In this document: piece after piece, positions 51,465 to 64,000 of the stretch
Numbering within the stretch: the first letter of the stretch is position 1
Layout of the letters: each line of letters begins with the position of its first letter
From: Ignavibacteriales bacterium
GTDB taxonomy: Bacteria; Bacteroidota; Ignavibacteria; Ignavibacteriales; SURF-24
Direction: 5' to 3'
Length of the DNA: 64,000 nt
NCBI GenBank assembly: GCA_026390815.1
Contig: JAPLFH010000007.1
Location: 124,001-188,000 of the forward strand
Notes under the pieces: model-generated
What the model saw: the letters and a program-made list of their open reading frames with translations, nothing else
Databases searched by the model: none
Told to the model about the DNA's origin: nothing
Program-made: the position numbers and the translations under genes

Positions 51465-53126
51465 ATGAAAGATAACATAAAACAAAAATTATTCTTCCTA
51501 TCCTTTCTATCACTCTTTTTGTTGAGTGGGCACGATATATCTTCAGCAGAAATTTTTATTAGAGTAAACCAGGTTGGTTTCCTTCCTAAGGATTTAAAAA
51601 CAGCAATTGTTTTATCCAATATGGATTTACTTAATCAACCGTTTTCAATCTGTAATGCTGAAGGTAAGGTTGTACTAAAAGACAAAATGGGAGAAAGCTC
51701 AGGCATATTCGGATCTTTTAATTATTCATATCAAATCAATTTTTCTATGGTTAAAAAACCTGGGAAGTACTTTATAGAAATTGAAACTACTAAATCTTTT
51801 ACCTTTGAAATTGGGGAAGGAATTTATAATAGAGTAGTTGATTCCTTAATGTTATTTTTTAAAGTACAACGCTGCGGATATACAAACCCATTGCTCCACA
51901 AAGTTTGTCATCCTTTTGATGCTACAAGTATTATTGATAATGGCAAAGTAATAAATGAAAAACCTGATGTTACCGGTGGATGGCATGATGCTGGCGATTA
52001 TGTGAAGTTTTTAAATACCACTGCATACGCTACTTATATTTTGATTTTTGCTTACGAGTTTGATCCACAAAAATTTGGGTTTGATAATGATAAAAATGGT
52101 GTACCTGATATTTTAGAAGAAGCTAAAATTGGGTTGGATTGGCTTTTAAGATTGAATTATAAGAATCAGAAATTTATTACACAGGTGCAGGATAATAGAG
52201 ATCATGCGCAAGGTTGGCGAAAACCAGAAGATGATCAACTGGCAACAGATAGACCGGCATTTTTAGGTATTGGAAAAAATTTAATTGGGATTTATTCCGC
52301 CACTATGGCATTGGCTGCCCGCACCTGGAATTCAAAAATTAAATTCCCAGAATTCGCTAACCTCTGTTTGACTGCAGCAGAAAATTTTTATTCAATAAGA
52401 AATGAAGTTCCTGATTTAGACACATCAACTATTGCTTATCGAGATGCAAAATTTTTTGGCAAGCTTGGAATTGGTGCGATGGAACTTTATCTTACAACTC
52501 AAAATCCAAAATATTTGAAGGATGCAAAAATTCTGGCAGATTCAACAAACCCAGATTTTTGGTGGAGTTGGGGAGATATTAATTCTATCCTGTACTATCG
52601 ATTGGCAAAAGAAGATTCCAAGTTTCAGAATCATCTTTTAAGCACATTAAATCATTTTGACAAATTAAAAGATAAAAAATTGTTTAACGAAGCTGTGAAT
52701 GATAGCTGGGGATCCAATACTGCATTATTAGGTGTGGCTTTGCAATCAATATTATGGAAGAAATTATCCTACAGCAACCAATTTGATTCCTTGCTTATTT
52801 TACAAAGAGATTTTATATTTGGTCGCAATCAATGGGGTGTTAGTTTTGTTTATAATATTGGTAAAGAGTACTCACATAATTTCCATTCTCAATTTGCCTT
52901 TTTTAATAATGGCTATCTTCCAGGTGCTGTATCTGCAGGTCCCGTTAGCAAACAAAATTTTTCTAAATATAAAATTAAATTTGAGTCCGATGATAGATTC
53001 CAAAAATTTCAAACGGCAGATGCAGTTTACTATGATGACCGAATAGATTTTGTAACAAATGAACCTACAATTACAACAAATGCTACTGCTGTTTTTGTAG
53101 TCGGCTGGTTTTCAAAGCAAAATTGA
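51465..53126 (+). CDS. glycoside hydrolase family 9 (endoglucanase-like)
   Basis: Exported beta-glucanase-type enzyme (553 residues). It has a signal peptide (residues ~8-28, cleavage near 'ISSAE') and a CelD_N Ig-like domain (~28-110, 'FIRVNQVGFLPKDLKTAIVL'). The (alpha/alpha)6 catalytic domain contains 'GGWHDAGDYVKF' (catalytic base Asp), 'DNDKNGVPDILEEAKIGLDWLL' and C-terminal 'DDRIDFVTNEPTITTNATAVF' (proton-donor Glu). No T9SS or dockerin domain is present. It may serve cellulose-type glucan uptake or, given its position next to the polysaccharide-synthase locus, trim the cell's own polymer. Confidence 0.92.
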   Translation: MKDNIKQKLFFLSFLSLFLLSGHDISSAEIFIRVNQVGFLPKDLKTAIVLSNMDLLNQPFSICNAEGKVVLKDKMGESSGIFGSFNYSYQINFSMVKKPGKYFIEIETTKSFTFEIGEGIYNRVVDSLMLFFKVQRCGYTNPLLHKVCHPFDATSIIDNGKVINEKPDVTGGWHDAGDYVKFLNTTAYATYILIFAYEFDPQKFGFDNDKNGVPDILEEAKIGLDWLLRLNYKNQKFITQVQDNRDHAQGWRKPEDDQLATDRPAFLGIGKNLIGIYSATMALAARTWNSKIKFPEFANLCLTAAENFYSIRNEVPDLDTSTIAYRDAKFFGKLGIGAMELYLTTQNPKYLKDAKILADSTNPDFWWSWGDINSILYYRLAKEDSKFQNHLLSTLNHFDKLKDKKLFNEAVNDSWGSNTALLGVALQSILWKKLSYSNQFDSLLILQRDFIFGRNQWGVSFVYNIGKEYSHNFHSQFAFFNNGYLPGAVSAGPVSKQNFSKYKIKFESDDRFQKFQTADAVYYDDRIDFVTNEPTITTNATAVFVVGWFSKQN

Positions 53127-53290: not shown

Positions 53291-54601
53291 ATGAAGAGAA
53301 ATATACAGTTAATTCAATCTGGAATTACACTTGTGGACCAGGCATGGGGCGGATTTTATAAAGGTGGTACATATCTTTTACTCGGTCCCAGAAAATCGGG
53401 GCGCACTTTATTAGGTTTACAATATGCACTTCAGGCAGCAAAGCAAAAAGAGATATGCCTTTATTTTACTACTATGCGTCCGAAAGATTTGATGATCCAT
53501 GCTGCATCAATTGATTTTGATTTGCAAAGTTTTATGAATCAAAATTTAATTGTAGTTGTAAGAGTTGCTCCTCCAACAGAAATAAATGATATTAGAAATC
53601 CAGACGAATATTTAATTGAATATTTTAAAGATATTGTAACAGTTGTAAATCAATTTACTCCAAACAGAATAATTTTTGATGAAATTACACCTTACTTAGG
53701 ATTTTCGAATCTTGAATTACTTCGCAATGCGTTCCTCCAAACATTAGAAACAATAGAAGAAAAAGATATTATCAGTTTGTTTATTATTGGCGAGCCTGCA
53801 ACCCCGGTTGCCCAATCTATTGTGGATTCTCTTGCACAATTTGTAACCGGTACAATTTATCTTCAGAAAAAACCATTAGGAAGCGAGGGAAAATACCAGG
53901 GTGGAAGATTAACTATTACACCTAATATAGGGCATACGGAAGGGCAATTTTCTGCAGATTATTTTATCGAACCATATAAAGGAATTGTTGTTGATTTTAA
54001 ACAAAACAATTATCAGCAAAACAGTTTTCAGCAAGGTATGCAATTTCCAACTCAAAATTTTCCTGCACCTCAACCACCATCATACAGTAAAAAGGATTCG
54101 CGCTATTTAAGCTTATCAAGTTTCGAAATTCCTTCGGAACCATATTCATTTTCTAATCTTTATGATTTTAACGACTTTTTGTTGATCCTTAACAATCAAA
54201 TTGCTTTATATAAAAGTACGGGACAAGTATTTAACATTGTATCATTCAAATTAGATGCAGGGGCTGAACAGAATGGGTTACTAACAGTTAACCAACTTCA
54301 GAATGCAATAAGATTAGCTACTGATAAGAAGGATAAAATTTGTGTTAAGGATAATAAAGTTGTTGTTCTAATAGTTCGTGGAGATAAAAAAGGTGTTCAG
54401 GATATGATCTCAAAAATCCAGAATAATTTACCAAATACAAATCCTGATTATGTTAAAGCAGTACTAAATTATATTTCGGTTTTATCTGTGGAGATTGATG
54501 AAAATATTGAGAATGCAGAGTCACTAATGAATTATATTACATCAGATGAAATGATATCGCGCGGTAATTTTGATTCATTTAATAAATTTAGCAGATTCTG
54601 A
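53291..54601 (+). CDS. KaiC/RecA-like protein with degenerate GGDEF-like C-terminus
   Basis: 436-residue cytoplasmic protein. Residues ~1-205 are RecA/KaiC-like: 'GITLVDQAWGGFYKGGTYLLLG', Walker A 'GPRKSGRT' at 32-39 with Arg in place of the invariant Lys, and Walker B 'RIIFDEIT' near 130-137. A Gln/Asn/Pro-rich linker (~235-275) follows. The C-terminal ~150 residues look like a GGDEF fold ('LYDFNDFLLILNNQIALYKSTG' helix, 'FNIVSFKLD', and 'KDNKVVVLIV' where GGDEF should be, then 'NIENAESLMNYI'). Active- and I-site residues appear lost. The layout recalls BcsE of cellulose systems. Its stop overlaps the next ATG (TGATG). Confidence 0.72.
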   Translation: MKRNIQLIQSGITLVDQAWGGFYKGGTYLLLGPRKSGRTLLGLQYALQAAKQKEICLYFTTMRPKDLMIHAASIDFDLQSFMNQNLIVVVRVAPPTEINDIRNPDEYLIEYFKDIVTVVNQFTPNRIIFDEITPYLGFSNLELLRNAFLQTLETIEEKDIISLFIIGEPATPVAQSIVDSLAQFVTGTIYLQKKPLGSEGKYQGGRLTITPNIGHTEGQFSADYFIEPYKGIVVDFKQNNYQQNSFQQGMQFPTQNFPAPQPPSYSKKDSRYLSLSSFEIPSEPYSFSNLYDFNDFLLILNNQIALYKSTGQVFNIVSFKLDAGAEQNGLLTVNQLQNAIRLATDKKDKICVKDNKVVVLIVRGDKKGVQDMISKIQNNLPNTNPDYVKAVLNYISVLSVEIDENIENAESLMNYITSDEMISRGNFDSFNKFSRF

Positions 54602-57498
54602 TGAAGAATTTTTTACTATTACTATTCATTTTCGTCTCATTTCTTTCAACAAATTTACTACCTCAAAATGTAGATGTGTTTAAAAAGGAAGCAATCAAAC
54701 ACATGCAAGCCGGCAGATATGGTGAAGCTATTGATTTGCTGAATAAATACATCTCAGCAGTACCTCATAAAGCAGATGGTTTACATTTAAGGGGATTATG
54801 CTATGAGGGGAGAGGAGAGTATGAATGGGCTGCACTTGACTTAAGAAGAGCGGTAAAACTTGAACCAAATAACAATCAAATCCAAAAAGATCTTGCCAGA
54901 ATTGAAGATATATGGCATGCTTTACTTAACAAGAAAATAGAAGGACATAAAAGAGAGATTGCTATAAATCCAAATATTGCTGTAAACTATCTTGAAATTG
55001 GAAAATGCAAAAAAAATCTTGGAGCATGGAAAGAAGCCGAAGAATGGTATGATGAATATTTGAAAAGAGATGATGCTTCATCTGATGAAGTTATTAGATA
55101 TACGGAAATACTTGCTCATAACAACTCAATTGTAAAAGGGGAAAAAATTCTTAAAAAATACACGGATAGATTTCCGAATGACCAGAGACTTTGGAGCCGT
55201 TATGGATTTTTTACAATGTGGCTTGGAAAAAATCGCATTGCAATAAAAGCGTTTGAAAATGCTCTTGCATTAAAACCTTTTTTTAAGGAAGCACAAGATG
55301 GCTTAGATCAGGCAAAAGGAAAACCATATCTTTTTGAGTGGGTTGATACAACAGCAAGATATAAAAAAGGTCCTATAGCCAAAGAATATCCTATTGATAA
55401 ATATTACCGTTCAGTGCGTAAGAATCCAGATGATTATGAAACACGTTTAGCCTTAGTTGAACAACTATATAAAAATGACAGGATTGAAGAAGCTTATCAA
55501 CAGCTGCAAATTTTGAATAAGGATCATTCTGATATTCCTAAAGTACAACAATATTGGGATAGCGTTACAACCTACAGAGACAAAATTTACAGGGTAAAAA
55601 TAAAAGAGTACGGTGATAGAATTATAAGCAATCCCAAAGATAGGGAGGCAGTTCTTAAGATAGCGGAATACTATGCCCACCTTGCCGAATATGACAGCGC
55701 TTTAGCGGTTTTGGATACTTATCTAAAAGATGTTCCACAGGATAAAGAATTGGAAGTAAGGTTCAGGGATGCACAATATTCAGCCTGGAATTACAATTGG
55801 GAAAAGGCAATCGCTCAGTTAAATTATCTTTTAGCTTCAGATCCAAATAATCTGGATTATCAGTTACTTCGTGCACAAATATCGGTTTGGACAGTTCAGG
55901 ACCTTGATGTGGCAAAAGGTTATTTAATTAATATTGTTGGTAAACAACCGGAAAATTTGAATGCCGTAATTGCAATATCCATTCTTTATGGTCAGCAAAA
56001 GAATTTTGATTCTTCTAAAACTTATTTAGAAATGGCTCGGCAGATTGATCCTAAAAGCAAAGGTGTAGAAGCAGCGCAGAATTTTTACGATGATGCATTT
56101 GCGTTTAATGAAGAAATGAAATTAGTTGAATTGCGTAGAGAAGCTGGAAATCTGGCGATTGGGGGTGATTGCCCAGGAGCTATCGCTAAGTATGAAGAAT
56201 ATTTATCTAAAGTAAGTAACCCGGATAAGTCTGTGCGGCTTGAATATGCAGAGGCAAATATGTGCGACAAAAATTTCATAAAAGCAATAGAAGTTTATGA
56301 TCAGATATTGAATGAAGAGTATGATTATAATGTTTCGCTTTTGAGAGCTAAAGCATATTTGTGGGGCGGAGACTCTACACTTGCGCTTACTGAATTAGAA
56401 AAACTTGTGATAGAAGATTCTTCCAGTTACGATGCCAAATTTTATTTAGCTGAAGCTTATGTAAGGAATGCTCATTATAATGAAGGAAAGGATTTATATA
56501 CAGAATTATTAGACAAAACAACAGACTCCACGCAGATAGATATACTTAAAAAAAGAATTGGCTGGATTCCTGTAACGGGAATTGCAGGAATATTTTCTTC
56601 ATTTCCTGTAGGAGTCGGCATCGCTCCATTGTTTTCTTATTATTCAGATAATTTTGATCTCATCTACAAAATTATTGGAGGAAGAATTGATGTTGGCTTA
56701 ACTGGATATTTATCAATAGGAGGATCCTTCAATAGGGGAATGCTCCAGAGAGATTTTGTTCATCGGAATTATTCATCTCTTAAAGGTGTAATTTCAATTT
56801 GGTTCAATAAATATTTATCGTTTAGTGGTGGATTAGGAAATCTAACTTACGATGGTGCTCACAATCGGACCGTTAGCGACGCTACTTTAAAATATGAAAA
56901 AGAAAATTATTTTATGATAGCCGGTTATTATGAAAACACTGATGCTGGATTAATTTTGTATTCTCCATATTTAGTTGATTATAGTTTTTTAACAGATAAC
57001 AGGATCGATGCGACTTTATATAAAATTATGGGATACTATCAACCAAGACCATCAATAAAATTTTCGGGTCACTTTCATTATTTACAATTATCTGATGGAA
57101 ATGCCGGCAACGATTTACAATTGCGATTAGGAAAGTTATTTGATTTCGGTCTTTGGGCTGGTTATGAATACTTCTATTCCAACTATGCTAGAAAGGCAGG
57201 AAAATCACCGTATGATAACACAAAATTTCTTTATTATTCACCAAAAGATTTCGAATCTCATAGTTTGTGGTTGGATTGGTTTGTTCAAAAAGAATCTTCG
57301 CTAGAAGTAATCATTGGTGGCAAGATTGGTTACGTCCCTCAAAGTGATTTCATTATCAGGGAAGTATCCGCTTCAGTAGCGTATAAACCAATTTCTAATT
57401 TAACAATTACTGCTAAATTGCAGATAGGCAGTACTTACAGATATGATTCATCATACCGTTATTTATCGTCGTCCATATATGCATACTGGAGTTTTTAA
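54601..57498 (+). CDS. TPR protein with C-terminal outer-membrane barrel (PgaA/BcsC-like)
   Basis: 965-residue exported protein. The signal peptide (MKNFLLLLFIFVSFLS) ends near 'NLLPQ'. Residues ~25-640 are at least ten tetratricopeptide repeats, e.g. 'AGRYGEAIDLLNKYISAVP', 'KNLGAWKEAEEWYDEYLKRD' and 'EYDSALAVLDTYLKDVPQD'. The last ~310 residues are strand-rich ('YLSIGGSFNRGML', 'WFNKYLSFSGGLGNLTY', 'LWAGYEYFYSNYAR') and end in aromatic 'YAYWSF', a typical barrel terminus. The TPR-plus-barrel layout matches polysaccharide exporters PgaA, BcsC and AlgK/E. It is coupled to the regulator upstream and sits 139 bases before the SGNH gene. Confidence 0.82.
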   Translation: MKNFLLLLFIFVSFLSTNLLPQNVDVFKKEAIKHMQAGRYGEAIDLLNKYISAVPHKADGLHLRGLCYEGRGEYEWAALDLRRAVKLEPNNNQIQKDLARIEDIWHALLNKKIEGHKREIAINPNIAVNYLEIGKCKKNLGAWKEAEEWYDEYLKRDDASSDEVIRYTEILAHNNSIVKGEKILKKYTDRFPNDQRLWSRYGFFTMWLGKNRIAIKAFENALALKPFFKEAQDGLDQAKGKPYLFEWVDTTARYKKGPIAKEYPIDKYYRSVRKNPDDYETRLALVEQLYKNDRIEEAYQQLQILNKDHSDIPKVQQYWDSVTTYRDKIYRVKIKEYGDRIISNPKDREAVLKIAEYYAHLAEYDSALAVLDTYLKDVPQDKELEVRFRDAQYSAWNYNWEKAIAQLNYLLASDPNNLDYQLLRAQISVWTVQDLDVAKGYLINIVGKQPENLNAVIAISILYGQQKNFDSSKTYLEMARQIDPKSKGVEAAQNFYDDAFAFNEEMKLVELRREAGNLAIGGDCPGAIAKYEEYLSKVSNPDKSVRLEYAEANMCDKNFIKAIEVYDQILNEEYDYNVSLLRAKAYLWGGDSTLALTELEKLVIEDSSSYDAKFYLAEAYVRNAHYNEGKDLYTELLDKTTDSTQIDILKKRIGWIPVTGIAGIFSSFPVGVGIAPLFSYYSDNFDLIYKIIGGRIDVGLTGYLSIGGSFNRGMLQRDFVHRNYSSLKGVISIWFNKYLSFSGGLGNLTYDGAHNRTVSDATLKYEKENYFMIAGYYENTDAGLILYSPYLVDYSFLTDNRIDATLYKIMGYYQPRPSIKFSGHFHYLQLSDGNAGNDLQLRLGKLFDFGLWAGYEYFYSNYARKAGKSPYDNTKFLYYSPKDFESHSLWLDWFVQKESSLEVIIGGKIGYVPQSDFIIREVSASVAYKPISNLTITAKLQIGSTYRYDSSYRYLSSSIYAYWSF

Positions 57499-57637: not shown

Positions 57638-58924
57638 TTGGTTATCACTAAATTAAATTTTAATTTTTTATGTTTGATGGCAATTACCTTTTTAACTCCC
57701 ACTGTTTTGGTTACTGCAGAACCCTTTTCTGATAATCCAAAAGAATCATTTTTTAATGTACTTGCTGAATCAGTTACTGCAGATAATTTATATTCAACTG
57801 CTACAACCTTATTAGGTAAAAAAATTCCCATCACGGGTAATTTAGAGCAGCTTAAATATTTCTTCGGCGCACTTAAGCAAAGTAAAAATAAGAAAGTAAG
57901 AATTGGTCATTTTGGTGATTCAATAATATTTGGCGATGTAATTACAGAAGGTTTAAGGGAAAATTTGCAGCAATCTTTTGGCGGAAATGGAGCTGGTTTT
58001 GTTTCTATAAATACAGAAGATTATGGTATGAGAAAAACTACGACCGTTTCATTTTCCAACGATTGGAGTGAAGCTTCATTATTTAAAAGAAATGCAAATA
58101 ATTTACCTTTAGGAATCAATGGTTGTGCATTTGTACCAGCAAATGGAAGCTTTGCAAAATTTGAAACCACAAGACTTACAAAAACCCTCAAATCTTTCAA
58201 GACAGTCAGATTGTTTTACAATAATCAGGATGCCGCTTGTTCTGTTAAATATTCCTTTAATAATGGTGCTTCGCAAAGCAAAAAATTAGACGCACTTAAT
58301 AAAGTAAGAGATTTAGTCCTTACTACACCAACCGACGCTACTTCAATCAGATTTGATTTTAATACTTGTCCAAAAGCCTATATTTATGGTGTAAGTTTAG
58401 AGAATGGAAATGGTGTGTATGTAGATAATTTTCCAATGAAGGGACAATCGGGAGTTCAATTAACGGATATTACTTTACCAGTTCTAAAAGATTTTAACGT
58501 TTTATTAGATTATAAATTGATAATTCTTAATTATGGTGTGAATGTAATTTCACCGCAAAATAGTGATTATCAATGGTACGAAACCAAAATGGAAAAAGTA
58601 ATTAATTATTTGAAATCCGCTTTTCCAAATGCGAGTATTTTACTTGTTAGCGTTGGTGATAAAAGTGTTAAAAAAGGAACTTCGTTTGTTACTGATCCAG
58701 GGATTCCTTTACTGTTAAAAGCTCAGAAAAATCTGGCTGAAAAAACTAAAATAGCTTTCTGGAATTTGTTTGAAGCTATGGGGGGTGCTAATTCAATTGA
58801 AGATTGGGTTAATGGAAAACCACAAATGGCTTTAAGAGATTATTGCCATCTTACTTCTGACGGCGGTAATTTAGTAGCTGATCTTTTAACTGAAGCGCTA
58901 ATGAATGAATTTAAAAAACAATGA
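57638..58924 (+). CDS. exported SGNH-fold hydrolase/acyltransferase
   Basis: The start is the TTG at 57638: GGAGG (57625-57629) lies eight bases upstream and the signal peptide (residues ~5-25, cleavage near 'VTAEP') then follows. The SGNH motifs are 'GHFGDSIIFGD' (Ser nucleophile near residue 94), 'NGCAFVPANG' and 'LNYGVN' (block III Asn), and 'DYCHLTSDG' (Asp/His near 405-408). It has 428 residues with a beta-domain insert between motif regions (~180-260, 'KYSFNNGASQSKK'). In an exopolysaccharide locus it is likely an acetyl esterase or O-acetyltransferase acting on the polymer outside the inner membrane, as AlgX/WssF-type proteins do. That role is inferred. Confidence 0.78.
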   Translation: MVITKLNFNFLCLMAITFLTPTVLVTAEPFSDNPKESFFNVLAESVTADNLYSTATTLLGKKIPITGNLEQLKYFFGALKQSKNKKVRIGHFGDSIIFGDVITEGLRENLQQSFGGNGAGFVSINTEDYGMRKTTTVSFSNDWSEASLFKRNANNLPLGINGCAFVPANGSFAKFETTRLTKTLKSFKTVRLFYNNQDAACSVKYSFNNGASQSKKLDALNKVRDLVLTTPTDATSIRFDFNTCPKAYIYGVSLENGNGVYVDNFPMKGQSGVQLTDITLPVLKDFNVLLDYKLIILNYGVNVISPQNSDYQWYETKMEKVINYLKSAFPNASILLVSVGDKSVKKGTSFVTDPGIPLLLKAQKNLAEKTKIAFWNLFEAMGGANSIEDWVNGKPQMALRDYCHLTSDGGNLVADLLTEALMNEFKKQ

Positions 58925-59100: not shown

Positions 59101-60501
59101 ATGCCTGATAAAAAAGAAATAGTGAAACGAAAAATTGTTTTGAATAATTATGAAGTTTCATCAGAAATACCTGACCGAGCTTCAAAGCATCTTAAAACAA
59201 TTATAGGAACTGGAGTACTTTCATTAATTCTTATTTTAGTTATCGTTTTTACTCTACCATTAACCGGATTGGCTTTAAATAGCTTGTTTGTATTCTCATC
59301 CATCGTTTCTCTCGTTATTTTTCTTTTTGTACTACTTATCAGATATTTTTCCACCCTATTTATGGCTTACTTTTTTATTACAAGATACTCAGTAAAAAAT
59401 AAAAATTCATATTCACCATTCGTCTCTATCATTGTTCCTGTTTATAATGAAGGCAAAGTATTAAAAGATTCAATTAAATCATTACTTGAGTTAAATTATT
59501 CTAACTACGAAATTATTATTGTAAATGATGGATCAACAGACAATACGAAAATTGTTGGGCAATCATTAGTTGGTATTAGAGATGGTATGAACTCAAAAGT
59601 AAGAATTTCGTTAATCAATAAACCAAATGGTGGTAAATCGAGAGCTTTAAATGCTGGGATAGAATATGCAAAAGGGGAATTTGTTTTATGTATGGATGGC
59701 GATTCTCACTTATCTGAAAACACCTTGAAGTTTGGTATAACACATTTTATAGATCCAATGGTTGGTGCTGTTGCTGGTAATGTAAAAGTGATGAACAGAA
59801 AAAAAATCCTAACCGATCTTCAAGCATTAGAATATCTTGAAGGTTTAAACATGCCCAGAAGTGCACAAGGCTTTTTAAGATTGGTTAATATTATCCCAGG
59901 TCCAATTGGCATTTTCAGGAAAAGAGCTATTCAAGATGCCGGCTGGTACTCAAGTGATACTTTTGCGGAAGATGCAGACATCACTTTAAAAATTCTTGCA
60001 GCCGGTTGGAGGATTGAATATGAACCGAATGCAATTTCCTGGACTGAAGCTCCTGCTACATTAAATCAATTATTAAAACAGCGATATAGATGGACACGAG
60101 GAATTATACAATCAATACGTAAACATAAACGGCATCTATTAAACCCAACTCTAAATTTCTCTAATTCTTTGGTGTTGTGGTCTATGTTTTACGAAGCATT
60201 AATATGGCCCACAATGAATATTTTTGCTAACCTATTTTTTATTATCGTAGCGGTGCTTTACGGTATGTCTAATCTGCTGGTTTTTTGGTGGGCTGGCTTA
60301 GCGCTATTGGATTTAATGACAGCCCTTTACTGCATTGCTGTTGAAAAAGAGGATGCAAGGTTAATTCCTTACGCTCTTGTTTATCGTGTATTTTTTATAC
60401 TATTAATCGATATTACAAAATTTATGGCAACAATAGAAGAATTCCTCGGATTCCAAATGACATGGGGAAAACTTGAACGAGTTGGTGTTGCAAAAGCTTA
60501 A
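59101..60501 (+). CDS. membrane glycosyltransferase family 2 (PgaC/IcaA-like polysaccharide synthase)
   Basis: Processive beta-glycosyltransferase of 466 residues. Two N-terminal membrane helices (~35-90) precede the GT-A domain: 'VSIIVPVYNEGKV', 'IIIVNDGSTDNTK', 'CMDGDSHL' (D-x-D), 'FAEDADITLKILAAGW' (catalytic Asp) and 'LKQRYRWTRG' (Q-x-x-R-W). Two to three C-terminal helices follow. The pattern is closest to poly-N-acetylglucosamine synthase PgaC and related hyaluronan/cellulose synthases. No PilZ domain is present, so c-di-GMP control, if any, must come through partners. Ribosome-site match is weak ('aagagcaataa'). It starts the gene run to 62880. Confidence 0.88.
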   Translation: MPDKKEIVKRKIVLNNYEVSSEIPDRASKHLKTIIGTGVLSLILILVIVFTLPLTGLALNSLFVFSSIVSLVIFLFVLLIRYFSTLFMAYFFITRYSVKNKNSYSPFVSIIVPVYNEGKVLKDSIKSLLELNYSNYEIIIVNDGSTDNTKIVGQSLVGIRDGMNSKVRISLINKPNGGKSRALNAGIEYAKGEFVLCMDGDSHLSENTLKFGITHFIDPMVGAVAGNVKVMNRKKILTDLQALEYLEGLNMPRSAQGFLRLVNIIPGPIGIFRKRAIQDAGWYSSDTFAEDADITLKILAAGWRIEYEPNAISWTEAPATLNQLLKQRYRWTRGIIQSIRKHKRHLLNPTLNFSNSLVLWSMFYEALIWPTMNIFANLFFIIVAVLYGMSNLLVFWWAGLALLDLMTALYCIAVEKEDARLIPYALVYRVFFILLIDITKFMATIEEFLGFQMTWGKLERVGVAKA

Positions 60502-60523: not shown

Positions 60524-60991
60524 ATGGAATTAATTCCTATACTATCGTTCATAATTCTTGTAGCAACAATTAGCACATTTATACTGGCTATTGGAGCTTA
60601 CGTTTTATACAAGATAAGGGAAGGTAAAGGCAAACTTGCCACTGCTCCTAAACCACGAGCAGTTGAAGGTGAACTTTATACTCCTGCCCAGGTTGTTGTT
60701 AGACAGGGTGTACCTGTTCAGCAAAGACAGCAAGTTTTTCAAGATCAATTTTATCAGAACGTGCCTTATGAACAACAAGCGCGACCGGGAACTCAACCAG
60801 GACAGCAAGAAAATGTTCAGCAAGGCGAATATAGGCATGGACCTCAACAACGCGCACCTTATCCTCAACAAAATCAGGCTGAAGGTGAATTTGATGAGAC
60901 CCCAGCTGATAAAAAATTCATGAAATACACTTCTGAAGGTTATGTGCCGGTAAATAAAACTAAAACCGGGGAAAACTTAAAGTGGCGGTAA
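60524..60991 (+). CDS. small one-helix membrane protein with Gln/Pro-rich tail
   Basis: 155 residues. A single transmembrane segment (residues ~3-30, 'ILSFIILVATISTFILAIGAY') is followed by basic 'YKIREGKGKLATAPKPR' and a low-complexity Gln/Pro/Gly tail (~60-130, e.g. 'RQGVPVQQRQQVFQDQ', 'RPGTQPGQQENVQQG'). The end is a conserved-looking 'KKFMKYTSEGYVPVNK'. No family recognised. It lies 22 bases after the synthase and overlaps the next gene by ten bases. Position and size recall PgaD, the small partner of PgaC, but there is one helix rather than two and no visible homology. Confidence 0.7.
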   Translation: MELIPILSFIILVATISTFILAIGAYVLYKIREGKGKLATAPKPRAVEGELYTPAQVVVRQGVPVQQRQQVFQDQFYQNVPYEQQARPGTQPGQQENVQQGEYRHGPQQRAPYPQQNQAEGEFDETPADKKFMKYTSEGYVPVNKTKTGENLKWR

Positions 60992-62880
60992 ATCAACCAA
61001 ATAGGATAAAAGTAAACCAGCTTATTATTTTACTTTCCGGGTTAGTTTTATTAACTGCTTCTGTACTTATTCTGCTGCTTGTACTTAAAAATGTTTATGG
61101 TAAGTATGACTTTGCAGAAGTAATACCATCAAAAGATACATTTAAAATATTTAGCTCACAAAAAAAATATAATGTAGGCATTCTTTATTCTAAATATACT
61201 GAGAATATGTTGCCACAGGGCAGCACCTGGTTGAATGACAATATTTCCACCTGGAAAAAATTTTTAGACGCTGAAAAAATTAATTATGAAATTATTAACG
61301 ACCAAAAAATTGAATTAGGTCAGCATTACAAATATGATCTAATAGTTTTACCTGGATCAAAATCACTTAGTGATAAAGAAATATCACAAATAAAAAAGTA
61401 TATTGAAAAAGGCGGAAGCATTTTTTCCACAAGTGGCACAGCATCTTTTTCTGATGATGGCAAATGGAGAGGATGGGAATTTTTCTCAGAAGTTTATGGA
61501 TTAAAATTTACCAAAGAAATTACTCCCGAAGAATTTTCGCGAATTCATACGCTCCGCGGAAACCTTCCACTTACTGCTGGCATTCCAACGGGTTATCCTT
61601 TAAAAATTGCTACCTGGGATAGACCGATTTCCTGCGAAGTCTTGGACCCACGAACAACCCAAGTTAGTTTTTGGTATAACTTTAGAAAAGAAGCTGGATT
61701 AGTAAGGGAAGAAGTAGATAAAAGTGCCGGAATAGTTTATGGTACTTATGGTAAAGGAAGATATGTGTGGTATGGCTTTGAACTAAATTCAGTTATTGGC
61801 GAACAGGAAGATTTTATTAATTTCGAAAAACTATTTAAGAACTCAGTTAATTGGTTAATGTATACACCAACTGTCCTTGTTAAAGATTGGCCTCCAACTT
61901 ACCGAGCAGCAGCCATTATCGTCCCGATGTTAACAAATAAAATTTGGAATGTTAAAAATCTTTTTGGGATTGCTAAAAGTGAAGATGTAAAAATGACGTT
62001 TTTTGTTGATCCTGTTATTACAGATGAAAACCAATCTTTATTGAAAGAATTATATAAGTACGGAGAAGTGGGCGACATTGTTGATATTGGATATTTAGAA
62101 TCAGTAACGGATACTGTAAATAAACTATATGATTACAATACACAGGTAATTCGTTTTAAACAAGGTAAAGCAGGATTGGAAAAAATTCCGAATGTAAAAA
62201 TTAGCGGAGCTTTACCATTATATGGATTATATGATGAAAATAGTGTTCAAGCATTAGTATCCTCCGGTTATGATTATGTTTTAACTGATTCGCTTACCGA
62301 CCGATCCGTACCCCGGACTCTGATTAGAGGAGATAAAAAGATTGTTTCTTTTACTAAAACCGCAAGAGATGATTATGAAGTTATTAGAGATTACGGATTG
62401 AAGGAAAAAAATTTTCAGCTTTATACTTATGAGGAAGATGTTGATAGACTTTTATTTGAAGGTGGATTATACATTTTTAAAATCCATACAGATTATCAGT
62501 GTTCACCGGAATATGTAGAAGTAGTTAGAGATTTAATCAGGTATATGAAAAGTAAAAATGTATGGATTGCAAGTGCTTCAGAAGTTAAAAATTGGTGGCT
62601 TTCTAAAAATAATATGGAAATTAGTACGGAAGTAAGAAGCGCCCGTCGTGTTGCCGTAGAAATTTCTAATCCTGGAAATACTGATGTAGATAATGTGATT
62701 GTACAGGTTAACTTGAACAAAGATGTTAAAAATATTCAAATCTCTTCAGAAATTTTTGGAACTAAAATTCCTAAGTATGAATTTGATAGCCGTACTCAAA
62801 TCCTAAGGTTAAAGATAAAAAAATTAGAAGCAGGTGAATCTGTTTCCTATTATGTTGATTACGATAATCTGAATACATAA
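60982..62880 (+). CDS. membrane-anchored GATase-like / NodB-like protein
   Basis: 632 residues from a GTG start at 60982. One N-terminal transmembrane segment (~13-38) leaves the rest outside the cytoplasm. Residues ~55-300 resemble a class-I GATase/BPL-like fold ('YKYDLIVLPGSKSLSDKEISQIKKYIEKG' in part, 'YGKGRYVWYGFELN'). Residues ~310-540 fit a NodB polysaccharide-deacetylase barrel ('AAAIIVPMLTNKIWN', 'DVKMTFFVDP', 'LVSSGYDYVLTDS'). The TFDD and H-x3-H metal ligands are replaced (VPML; Y/S). A C-terminal beta-sandwich ends it. A catalytically dead deacetylase-like protein that binds the polymer is the likely role, in place of PgaB. Confidence 0.72.
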   Translation: MAVNQPNRIKVNQLIILLSGLVLLTASVLILLLVLKNVYGKYDFAEVIPSKDTFKIFSSQKKYNVGILYSKYTENMLPQGSTWLNDNISTWKKFLDAEKINYEIINDQKIELGQHYKYDLIVLPGSKSLSDKEISQIKKYIEKGGSIFSTSGTASFSDDGKWRGWEFFSEVYGLKFTKEITPEEFSRIHTLRGNLPLTAGIPTGYPLKIATWDRPISCEVLDPRTTQVSFWYNFRKEAGLVREEVDKSAGIVYGTYGKGRYVWYGFELNSVIGEQEDFINFEKLFKNSVNWLMYTPTVLVKDWPPTYRAAAIIVPMLTNKIWNVKNLFGIAKSEDVKMTFFVDPVITDENQSLLKELYKYGEVGDIVDIGYLESVTDTVNKLYDYNTQVIRFKQGKAGLEKIPNVKISGALPLYGLYDENSVQALVSSGYDYVLTDSLTDRSVPRTLIRGDKKIVSFTKTARDDYEVIRDYGLKEKNFQLYTYEEDVDRLLFEGGLYIFKIHTDYQCSPEYVEVVRDLIRYMKSKNVWIASASEVKNWWLSKNNMEISTEVRSARRVAVEISNPGNTDVDNVIVQVNLNKDVKNIQISSEIFGTKIPKYEFDSRTQILRLKIKKLEAGESVSYYVDYDNLNT

Positions 62881-62913
62881 ATCAAAAATGTTTATTTGGG
62901 AACCTCAATAGTC

Positions 62914-64000
62914 ATGAAAAAATTTATTTTTAAAATAATGTTAATCATTATTCCTTTAATCATTTCCGTCGTCGGTTGCGTAGATTCATTGAATTCAACT
63001 GATAAACTACCTCCAAGTGTTTCAGTCTACAAACCAGCAACGAGCGATACAATTTCAGTTGATACTGTTAAAATAAGTTATACTGCTTTTGATGATCAGG
63101 AATTAAGCTCAATAAGTGTTGTGCTGAATGGTATATTCCAGAATAGTTTTAATGCAAAAGAAAATGTTCATCCTGAAGTTTATTTTGTACTGGATTCTAC
63201 ATTTGTTAGTCAACAGATTTCCTATTATTTAATTGCTTATGATGTTGCAGGTAATTCAAAAAAAAGTAACGAAATGACAGGGATTTATATTGTTAAGCAG
63301 TTAAGTAAACCTACTTTTCTTAAATTGGAAATTAAATCAAAGTTACACTTTACACTTACCTGGGATTATATTCCTTCAAACGAATTAGGTTATGAAATTC
63401 ATCGTAAGGAAGGACAGACCGGAGTTTTTAATTATTATAAAACGATTCCTGCTGGAACCAGATCATATGATGTTGTAGAGACCAATGATAAAAAAATCTA
63501 TTATTATAAAGTAAGAGCATATAATAAATATGGATATTCAAATTTCACAAATCAGGTAAGCTCCATCGGAGATCCACCGCAGGCTCCTACAGGATTAACG
63601 GCAATTTCTACTGGTACTAAAACAGTTAAGCTTACCTGGAGAGATAATTCAAACAATGAAACAAGTTTTCTTTTGCAAAGGAAATGGGCTGGTGATGAAT
63701 CTCCTTATATAAATGTGGCTACTATCAATCCGGACATTAGTGAATATATTGACACAAAAAATATTACCGCTGGAACAGGATTTCAATATAGGATTTGTGC
63801 CCAGATAGATACCTTAAAATCTAATTGGTCAAACGAAGTTCAGGTAACAACATTAACTGAAGATATTTTTACACCTACAAACCTTTCGGCTTCGTTTAAT
63901 CCAACTTCTAAGTCTGTAGTTTTAACCTGGGTTGATAATAATGCAAATGATTTATATACCAGAATATTTAGAAAAAAAGATTCAGATTTAAATTTTGGAA
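62914..64000 (+). CDS. FnIII-repeat lipoprotein, 3'-truncated by window edge
   Basis: The open frame starts at ATG 62914 and runs off the right edge (362 codons seen). Signal 'IMLIIIPLIISVVGC' gives lipidated Cys near residue 22. An N-terminal Ig-like module (~30-130) is followed by at least three FnIII modules: 'KSKLHFTLTWDYIPSNELGYEIH', 'TKTVKLTWRDNSNNETSFLL' in part and 'SKSVVLTWVDNNANDLYTRIF'. The gene is 33 bases after the deacetylase-like gene on the same strand and is likely part of that operon. It may hold the polymer or an OM component at the surface. It is similar in type to the lipoprotein at 6922. Confidence 0.8.
   Translation, partial: MKKFIFKIMLIIIPLIISVVGCVDSLNSTDKLPPSVSVYKPATSDTISVDTVKISYTAFDDQELSSISVVLNGIFQNSFNAKENVHPEVYFVLDSTFVSQQISYYLIAYDVAGNSKKSNEMTGIYIVKQLSKPTFLKLEIKSKLHFTLTWDYIPSNELGYEIHRKEGQTGVFNYYKTIPAGTRSYDVVETNDKKIYYYKVRAYNKYGYSNFTNQVSSIGDPPQAPTGLTAISTGTKTVKLTWRDNSNNETSFLLQRKWAGDESPYINVATINPDISEYIDTKNITAGTGFQYRICAQIDTLKSNWSNEVQVTTLTEDIFTPTNLSASFNPTSKSVVLTWVDNNANDLYTRIFRKKDSDLNFG

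What the first reader, a model, noticed from the sequence alone, without database searches (positions are those of the whole stretch)
53291..54601. Regulator fuses a lysine-less Walker A with a degenerate GGDEF-like domain, echoing BcsE
Seen: 'GPRKSGRT' has Arg where the Lys that contacts phosphate should be, and 'KDNKV' falls where GGDEF should be, with the flanking strand/helix pattern kept. Known: BcsE, a c-di-GMP sensor in cellulose systems, combines a non-catalytic NTPase-like N-terminus with degenerate receiver and GGDEF domains. Inferred: this protein may link c-di-GMP or another signal to a synthase that lacks PilZ.
Basis: partly seen in the sequence, partly recalled or inferred. Interest (0 to 1): 0.65.

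Follow-up and report, generated by a model that had tools for sequence, protein, structure and literature searches.

The report
Pseudo-KaiC/pseudo-GGDEF exopolysaccharide regulator
A cytosolic protein built from a KaiC-type ATPase domain and a worn-out cyclic-di-GMP-synthase (GGDEF) domain is encoded inside an ancient slime-polymer secretion operon of Ignavibacteria, and it most likely works like the cellulose-system scaffold BcsE, although these bacteria appear to make no cyclic-di-GMP at all.

Summary
The 436-aa ORF at 53291-54601 has an N-terminal KaiC/RecA domain (Pfam E=3.6e-21; predicted-fold Z 23-26 to KaiC) whose Walker A is GPRKSGRT. Its C-terminus has a clear GGDEF fold (Z 9.7-11.9; all top 50 structures are GGDEF proteins, PelD included) without the GGDEF motif. 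'Lysine-less' is not fixed: Arg in 70/79 and Lys in 9/79 relatives, Arg ancestral, always basic. KaiC's catalytic Glu pair is gone in 79/79. The gene is a core member of an operon conserved across Ignavibacteriales (GH9, this gene, TPR/barrel, processive GT2 without PilZ, small membrane protein, pseudo-deacetylase) and, diverged, in other classes of the phylum; it is lost together with the operon. The BcsE-like architecture is supported; BcsE membership is not (no PF10995 hit, no REC domain, no profile similarity). The c-di-GMP link is opposed for this lineage: I-site Arg absent in 79/79; 59 genomes have no PilZ, no EAL and one GGDEF protein each, degenerate in all 30 inspected. Best reading: a pseudo-NTPase/pseudo-cyclase scaffold that assembles or gates the synthase by protein contacts, decoupled from c-di-GMP. 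No description found in the papers searched. Function is inferred, not shown.

The parts
53291..54601 (+). KaiC-like / degenerate-GGDEF regulator, 436 aa, no predicted membrane segment
53291..53998 (+). KaiC/RecA-like N-terminal domain (aa 1-236)
   Evidence: Pfam PF06745 E=3.6e-21; VIA-align Z 23-26 to KaiC chains, rmsd 2.3-3.6 over 210-236 aa
53384..53407 (+). Walker A variant GPRKSGRT (aa 32-39); R38 replaces the usual Lys
   Evidence: R 70/79, K 9/79; at least 6 state changes on the tree
53468..53491 (+). TTMRPKDL (aa 60-67), at the place of KaiC's catalytic FEE; R63, P64, D66 invariant, no Glu
53675..53683 (+). Walker B-like F-D-E (aa 129-131), invariant in Ignavibacteriales
   Evidence: 79/79
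53999..54154 (+). Low-confidence, Pro/Gln-rich linker (aa 237-288); no receiver domain
   Evidence: pLDDT 36-54 in most of it; variable length in relatives
54155..54544 (+). [quoted passage not shown]
54323..54334 (+). Position of the I-site RxxD: here D345-K-K-D348 (Asp kept, Arg lost)
   Evidence: R at 345 in 0/79; D at 348 in 78/79; register from hhalign to relatives that carry RxxD
54347..54361 (+). KDNKV (aa 353-357) in the beta-hairpin where GGDEF should be (best register DNKVV, 354-358)
51465..53126 (+). GH9 endoglucanase, directly upstream; catalytic DAGD and NEP motifs conserved
54601..57498 (+). TPR plus predicted outer-membrane barrel exporter (BcsC/PgaA-like); start overlaps the regulator's stop (TGATG)
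57638..58924 (+). GDSL/SGNH-like protein (optional member)
59101..60501 (+). Processive GT2 synthase (NDGS, DGD, TFAED, QRYRW conserved), PgaC-like, without PilZ
60524..60991 (+). Small single-pass membrane protein with a long hydrophilic C-terminal tail
60982..62880 (+). Membrane-anchored flavodoxin/deacetylase-like protein lacking NodB catalytic motifs
62896..63999 (+). fn3-domain surface protein, cut by the window end

Best explanation
The protein is a cytosolic pseudo-enzyme scaffold and regulator of a synthase-dependent exopolysaccharide secretion machine. Shown: the operon genes travel together and are lost together, and are often arranged for translational coupling; the folds are KaiC-like and GGDEF-like (by prediction); cyclase residues and KaiC-type hydrolysis residues are missing. 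Inferred: the KaiC-like domain self-associates, possibly with ATP bound as a structural or slow switch, and docks near the inner-membrane synthase, probably through the small single-pass protein at 60524-60991, as BcsF recruits the NTPase* domain of BcsE. The GGDEF* domain serves as a protein-binding module that presents or gates the GT2 synthase. In this lineage it does so without c-di-GMP, because the I-site Arg is gone and no enzyme that would make c-di-GMP was found.
For: Operon: in 30 loci with full 10-kb flanks, GH9 29, TPR/barrel 29, GT2 28, small protein 28, deacetylase-like 27; stop/start overlap (-1 or -4) with the TPR gene in 33 loci. Near-universal in the order: 56 of 59 genomes match, though one of these (G056) has only canonical KaiC hits. 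Co-loss: 4 of 4 genomes without the gene also lack the operon's deacetylase-like gene; 5 of 6 tested genomes with it keep that gene. Same operon in other classes with full-length homologues (hhalign 100%, E 5e-53). Folds. Active sites: KaiC FEE absent 79/79; I-site Arg absent 79/79. No c-di-GMP machinery; and 11 of 12 genomes of the other classes have no GGDEF hit. BcsE precedent for NTPase*-GGDEF* scaffolding and BcsF docking: PMC11470070, PMC7439463.
Against: No interaction, localisation or biochemical data; no complex was modelled. ATP hydrolysis is not excluded (K in 9/79, invariant D130-E131). RxxD in 7 of 10 relatives of other classes, and one of those genomes with a real GGDEF protein, leave c-di-GMP binding possible in that branch. 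The polymer is unknown.
Confidence: 0.6

Rival explanations
1. It is a c-di-GMP sensor of the BcsE/PelD type that links c-di-GMP to the PilZ-less synthase.
For: GGDEF* fold, PelD among the structural matches (Z 10.9); RxxD in 7 of 10 relatives from other classes; Asp of the I-site kept.
Against: I-site Arg replaced by D/S/N/T/E in the 79 relatives, never Arg. No PilZ or EAL in 59 genomes; one GGDEF protein per genome, active-site motif lost in all 30 inspected. 11 of 12 genomes of the RxxD-bearing branch have no GGDEF hit.
Confidence: 0.06
2. It is a working KaiC-type ATPase with a non-standard P-loop (Arg or Lys, Walker B Asp-Glu) that powers or times assembly or secretion; the GGDEF* domain is only an adaptor.
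For: Basic residue kept at position 38 in 89/89; K35, G37, T39 and D130-E131 nearly invariant in Ignavibacteriales; KaiC-only paralogues in tandem in some genomes suggest ring or hetero-oligomer formation.
Against: KaiC's catalytic Glu pair absent in 79/79; relatives in other classes lose K35, T39 and E131 as well yet keep the operon.
Confidence: 0.2
3. It senses another nucleotide, for example c-di-AMP, through the GGDEF* domain or the P-loop pocket.
For: Diadenylate cyclase is present in 58/59 order genomes and 12/12 of the others; a conserved KKDKxC patch lies where the I-site would be.
Against: DAC is widespread and usually not linked to the operon; no known c-di-AMP receptor has this fold (own knowledge); nothing here tests binding.
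Confidence: 0.1

Closest known systems
BcsE (E. coli Type II cellulose secretion; NTPase*-REC*-GGDEF*)
   Same: Cytosolic fusion of a degenerate RecA/KaiC-like domain with a degenerate GGDEF domain, encoded with an exopolysaccharide synthase, an endoglucanase, a TPR/barrel exporter and a small single-pass membrane protein
   Different: No REC* domain, no RxxD in this lineage, no PF10995 match, no profile similarity; P-loop far better preserved; no PilZ on the synthase and apparently no c-di-GMP; PgaC-like synthase, GH9 instead of GH8
PelD (degenerate GGDEF receptor of the Pel system)
   Same: Degenerate GGDEF fold used by an exopolysaccharide synthase system (VIA-align Z 10.9, rmsd 3.5); sub-threshold PelD_GGDEF matches in 4/10 relatives from other classes
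   Different: PelD is a membrane-anchored GAF-GGDEF protein with a working RxxD site (own knowledge and PMC7439463); this one is soluble and KaiC-fused
KaiC / FlaH (ArlH)
   Same: KaiC fold (Z 23-26); FlaH is also a single KaiC-type domain (Z 23.6) that serves a surface machine
   Different: No catalytic Glu pair, Arg in Walker A, fused to GGDEF*, encoded in an exopolysaccharide operon

Membership tests
BcsE (PF10995) | Match to the BcsE family model | tested here: not met
   No PF10995 match at E<=1; E. coli BcsE scores 757 bits
BcsE (PF10995) | Degenerate receiver domain between NTPase* and GGDEF* | tested here: not met
   aa 241-288 is a low-confidence linker too short for a receiver domain
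BcsE (PF10995) | Profile-level sequence similarity | tested here: not met
   hhalign probability below 1% for both branches; BcsE profile of only 5 sequences
BcsE (PF10995) | RxxD I-site on the GGDEF* domain | tested here: not met
   R at 345 in 0/79; RxxD in 7/10 relatives of other classes
BcsE (PF10995) | Degenerate NTPase-like domain fused to a degenerate GGDEF domain | tested here: met
BcsE (PF10995) | c-di-GMP binding; binding of BcsQ and BcsF | not testable with these tools
   needs protein biochemistry
KaiC domain (PF06745) | Pfam KaiC model above cut-off and KaiC fold | tested here: met
   76 bits, cut-off 26.6; Z 23-26
KaiC domain (PF06745) | Canonical Walker A Lys and catalytic Glu pair (active ATPase) | tested here: not met
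   R38 in 70/79; no Glu at the FEE site in 79/79
GGDEF domain (PF00990 clan) | GGDEF fold | tested here: met
   Z 9.7-11.9, all top 50 rows GGDEF-type
GGDEF domain (PF00990 clan) | Pfam GGDEF match above cut-off | tested here: not met
   none for the window protein; sub-threshold in relatives
Diguanylate cyclase | GG[DE]EF active site | tested here: not met
   KDNKV/DNKVV instead

The most novel reading that the evidence does not exclude
A whole bacterial order (and members of other classes of its phylum) runs a BcsE-like, cyclic-di-GMP-independent exopolysaccharide secretion system in which a KaiC-type P-loop switch fused to a relict GGDEF domain replaces second-messenger control, assembled independently of BcsE.
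Probability: 0.4. Interest if true: 0.8.

Novelty: new variant of a known kind. Interest (0 to 1): 0.6.

Why it matters
Synthase-dependent exopolysaccharides in model Gram-negative bacteria are commonly under c-di-GMP control. Here a lineage that seems to have no c-di-GMP keeps a GGDEF-fold subunit as a near-universal, co-inherited part of its secretion operon. That separates the structural role of such degenerate domains from ligand sensing, and offers a natural test of whether BcsE-type scaffolding came before, or can outlive, c-di-GMP control. It also marks an uncharacterised, order-wide polymer secretion system, probably for a beta-glucan, since an intact GH9 endoglucanase gene is almost always next door (inference).

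Tried and rejected
BcsE homology by profile: no significant match. BcsE was not among the 50 rows shown by VIA-align, which does not exclude it. hmmsearch of both C-terminal profiles against PDB sequences gave only chance hits, and hhalign against the order's own GAF-GGDEF* family gave none, so the GGDEF call rests on fold plus weak Pfam-clan matches. Two genomes (G002, G004) carry a second DAC gene about 9-11 kb from the regulator; the genes between (kinase, TPR, DNA polymerase nearby) look unrelated, so no c-di-AMP link is claimed. E. coli GGDEF loci could not be searched by handle. Paper searches for KaiC plus GGDEF plus exopolysaccharide, and for Ignavibacteria plus cellulose or c-di-GMP, found no description of this system.

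Full report
What was checked. The ORF lies exactly at 53291-54601 on the + strand and encodes 436 aa. Pfam finds a KaiC domain (PF06745, E=3.6e-21) at aa 9-196 and nothing above cut-off in the C-terminal third. Relatives show that the window comes from an Ignavibacteriales genome: 56 of 59 genomes searched give a match (in one of them, G056, only canonical KaiC matches), and named relatives are Melioribacter, Stygiobacter, Ignavibacteriaceae and uncultured Ignavibacteria.

N-terminal domain. The AlphaFold2 model (79 sequences, mean pLDDT 83.8) matches KaiC chains with Z 23-26 over 210-236 residues (Foldseek E down to 1.6e-15). Walker A is GPRKSGRT. Position 38 is Arg in 70 and Lys in 9 of 79 relatives. 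A careful tree needs at least six changes of that state, and the sister branch from other classes is Arg in 10 of 10, so Arg is most simply ancestral and Lys has come back several times. The site is thus always basic. The catalytic Glu pair of KaiC (FEE, present in four KaiC paralogues, two from this genome and two from relatives) is replaced by T-x-M-R-P-K-D in essentially all 79; D130-E131 after the Walker B strand is invariant. Inference: KaiC-type hydrolysis is lost or rebuilt; nucleotide binding may remain.

C-terminal domain. Predicted alone (pLDDT 84.0, pTM 0.79) it returns diguanylate-cyclase/GGDEF-type structures: Foldseek E 2.4e-5 at best, TM about 0.6, VIA-align Z 9.7-11.9 for all 50 rows shown, PelD at Z 10.9 and rmsd 3.5. 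The hairpin that should carry GGDEF reads V-K-D-N-K-V-V. By sequence the link is indirect: full-length homologues in other classes (hhalign 100%, E 5e-53; C-terminal domain alone 95.6%, E 1e-8) give sub-threshold matches to GGDEF_2 (9/10), PelD_GGDEF (4/10) and GGDEF (4/10). Those relatives carry RxxD at the I-site in 7 of 10; in Ignavibacteriales the Arg is absent in 79/79 while the Asp stays in 78/79.

Context. The neighbours are a GH9 endoglucanase with intact DAGD and NEP motifs, a TPR/barrel exporter, an optional GDSL protein, a processive GT2 with NDGS, DGD, TFAED and QRYRW and no PilZ, a small single-pass protein, a membrane-anchored deacetylase-like protein without NodB catalytic residues, and an fn3 protein. 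The gene order is conserved, also with the divergent relatives of other classes. The regulator's stop overlaps the exporter's start (TGATG), a -1 or -4 overlap in 33 loci. Four genomes without the regulator also lack the deacetylase-like gene; five of six tested genomes with it keep that gene, the exception (G049) having a decayed regulator P-loop and neighbourhood.

The c-di-GMP question. PilZ: 0 of 59 genomes; EAL: 0 of 59; GGDEF: exactly one protein per genome (the controls rang in known c-di-GMP users). All 30 of these that were translated lack the active-site motif, with residues such as DDRTF or SEKVF instead. In the other classes 11 of 12 regulator-bearing genomes have no GGDEF hit. c-di-AMP cyclase is present in 58/59 and 12/12.

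Comparison. BcsE is described as an NTPase*-REC*-GGDEF* protein whose NTPase* domain is docked by the BcsF tail and whose GGDEF* domain binds c-di-GMP and BcsQ (PMC11470070; PMC7439463). The window protein shares the NTPase*/GGDEF* plan and the operon setting, but fails the BcsE family model, lacks REC*, lacks RxxD and shows no profile similarity. It may work like BcsE; it is not shown to be a BcsE. Paper searches found no account of this system, within an open-access library only.

Verdict. A real, conserved, co-inherited subunit of what seems to be an undescribed exopolysaccharide system: a new variant of the degenerate-GGDEF regulator kind, with the surprise that it persists where c-di-GMP signalling seems absent. 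Predicted fold, conservation and genomic context are shown; scaffolding, docking through the small protein, and ligand independence are inferred.

Noticed in passing
window 60982-62880: Polysaccharide-deacetylase-like protein (with a flavodoxin/ThuA-like part) lacks the NodB TFDD and HxxxH motifs across about 59 relatives: another likely pseudo-enzyme of the operon; some genomes have a second copy (L038, L046, L050, L068, L070).
   Followed up: partly
L180-L209 (one per Ignavibacteriales genome): A conserved GAF-GAF-GGDEF* protein of about 630 aa is the only GGDEF-family protein in each genome and lacks the active-site motif (e.g. DDRTF, SERVF); weak similarity to the GdpP GGDEF model.
   Followed up: partly
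L038:5502; L048:13756 and 14674; L049:12938: Truncated KaiC-only paralogues of 249-285 aa lie in tandem directly upstream of the regulator in some relatives, some with Lys in Walker A.
   Followed up: partly
59 Ignavibacteriales genomes: The order appears to lack c-di-GMP signalling altogether (no PilZ, no EAL, no intact GGDEF seen) while keeping c-di-AMP cyclase.
   Followed up: yes
L032:2074-3528; G004:C17:48942-49298: A second, longer DAC (c-di-AMP cyclase) gene with an extra C-terminal region lies about 9-11 kb from the regulator in one genus of the window's family.
   Followed up: partly
L168, L169, L145: Loci titled Tenericutes MAG22 and Chlorobiaceae BC.017 carry typical Ignavibacteriales versions of the gene; the record titles are probably wrong.
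   Followed up: no
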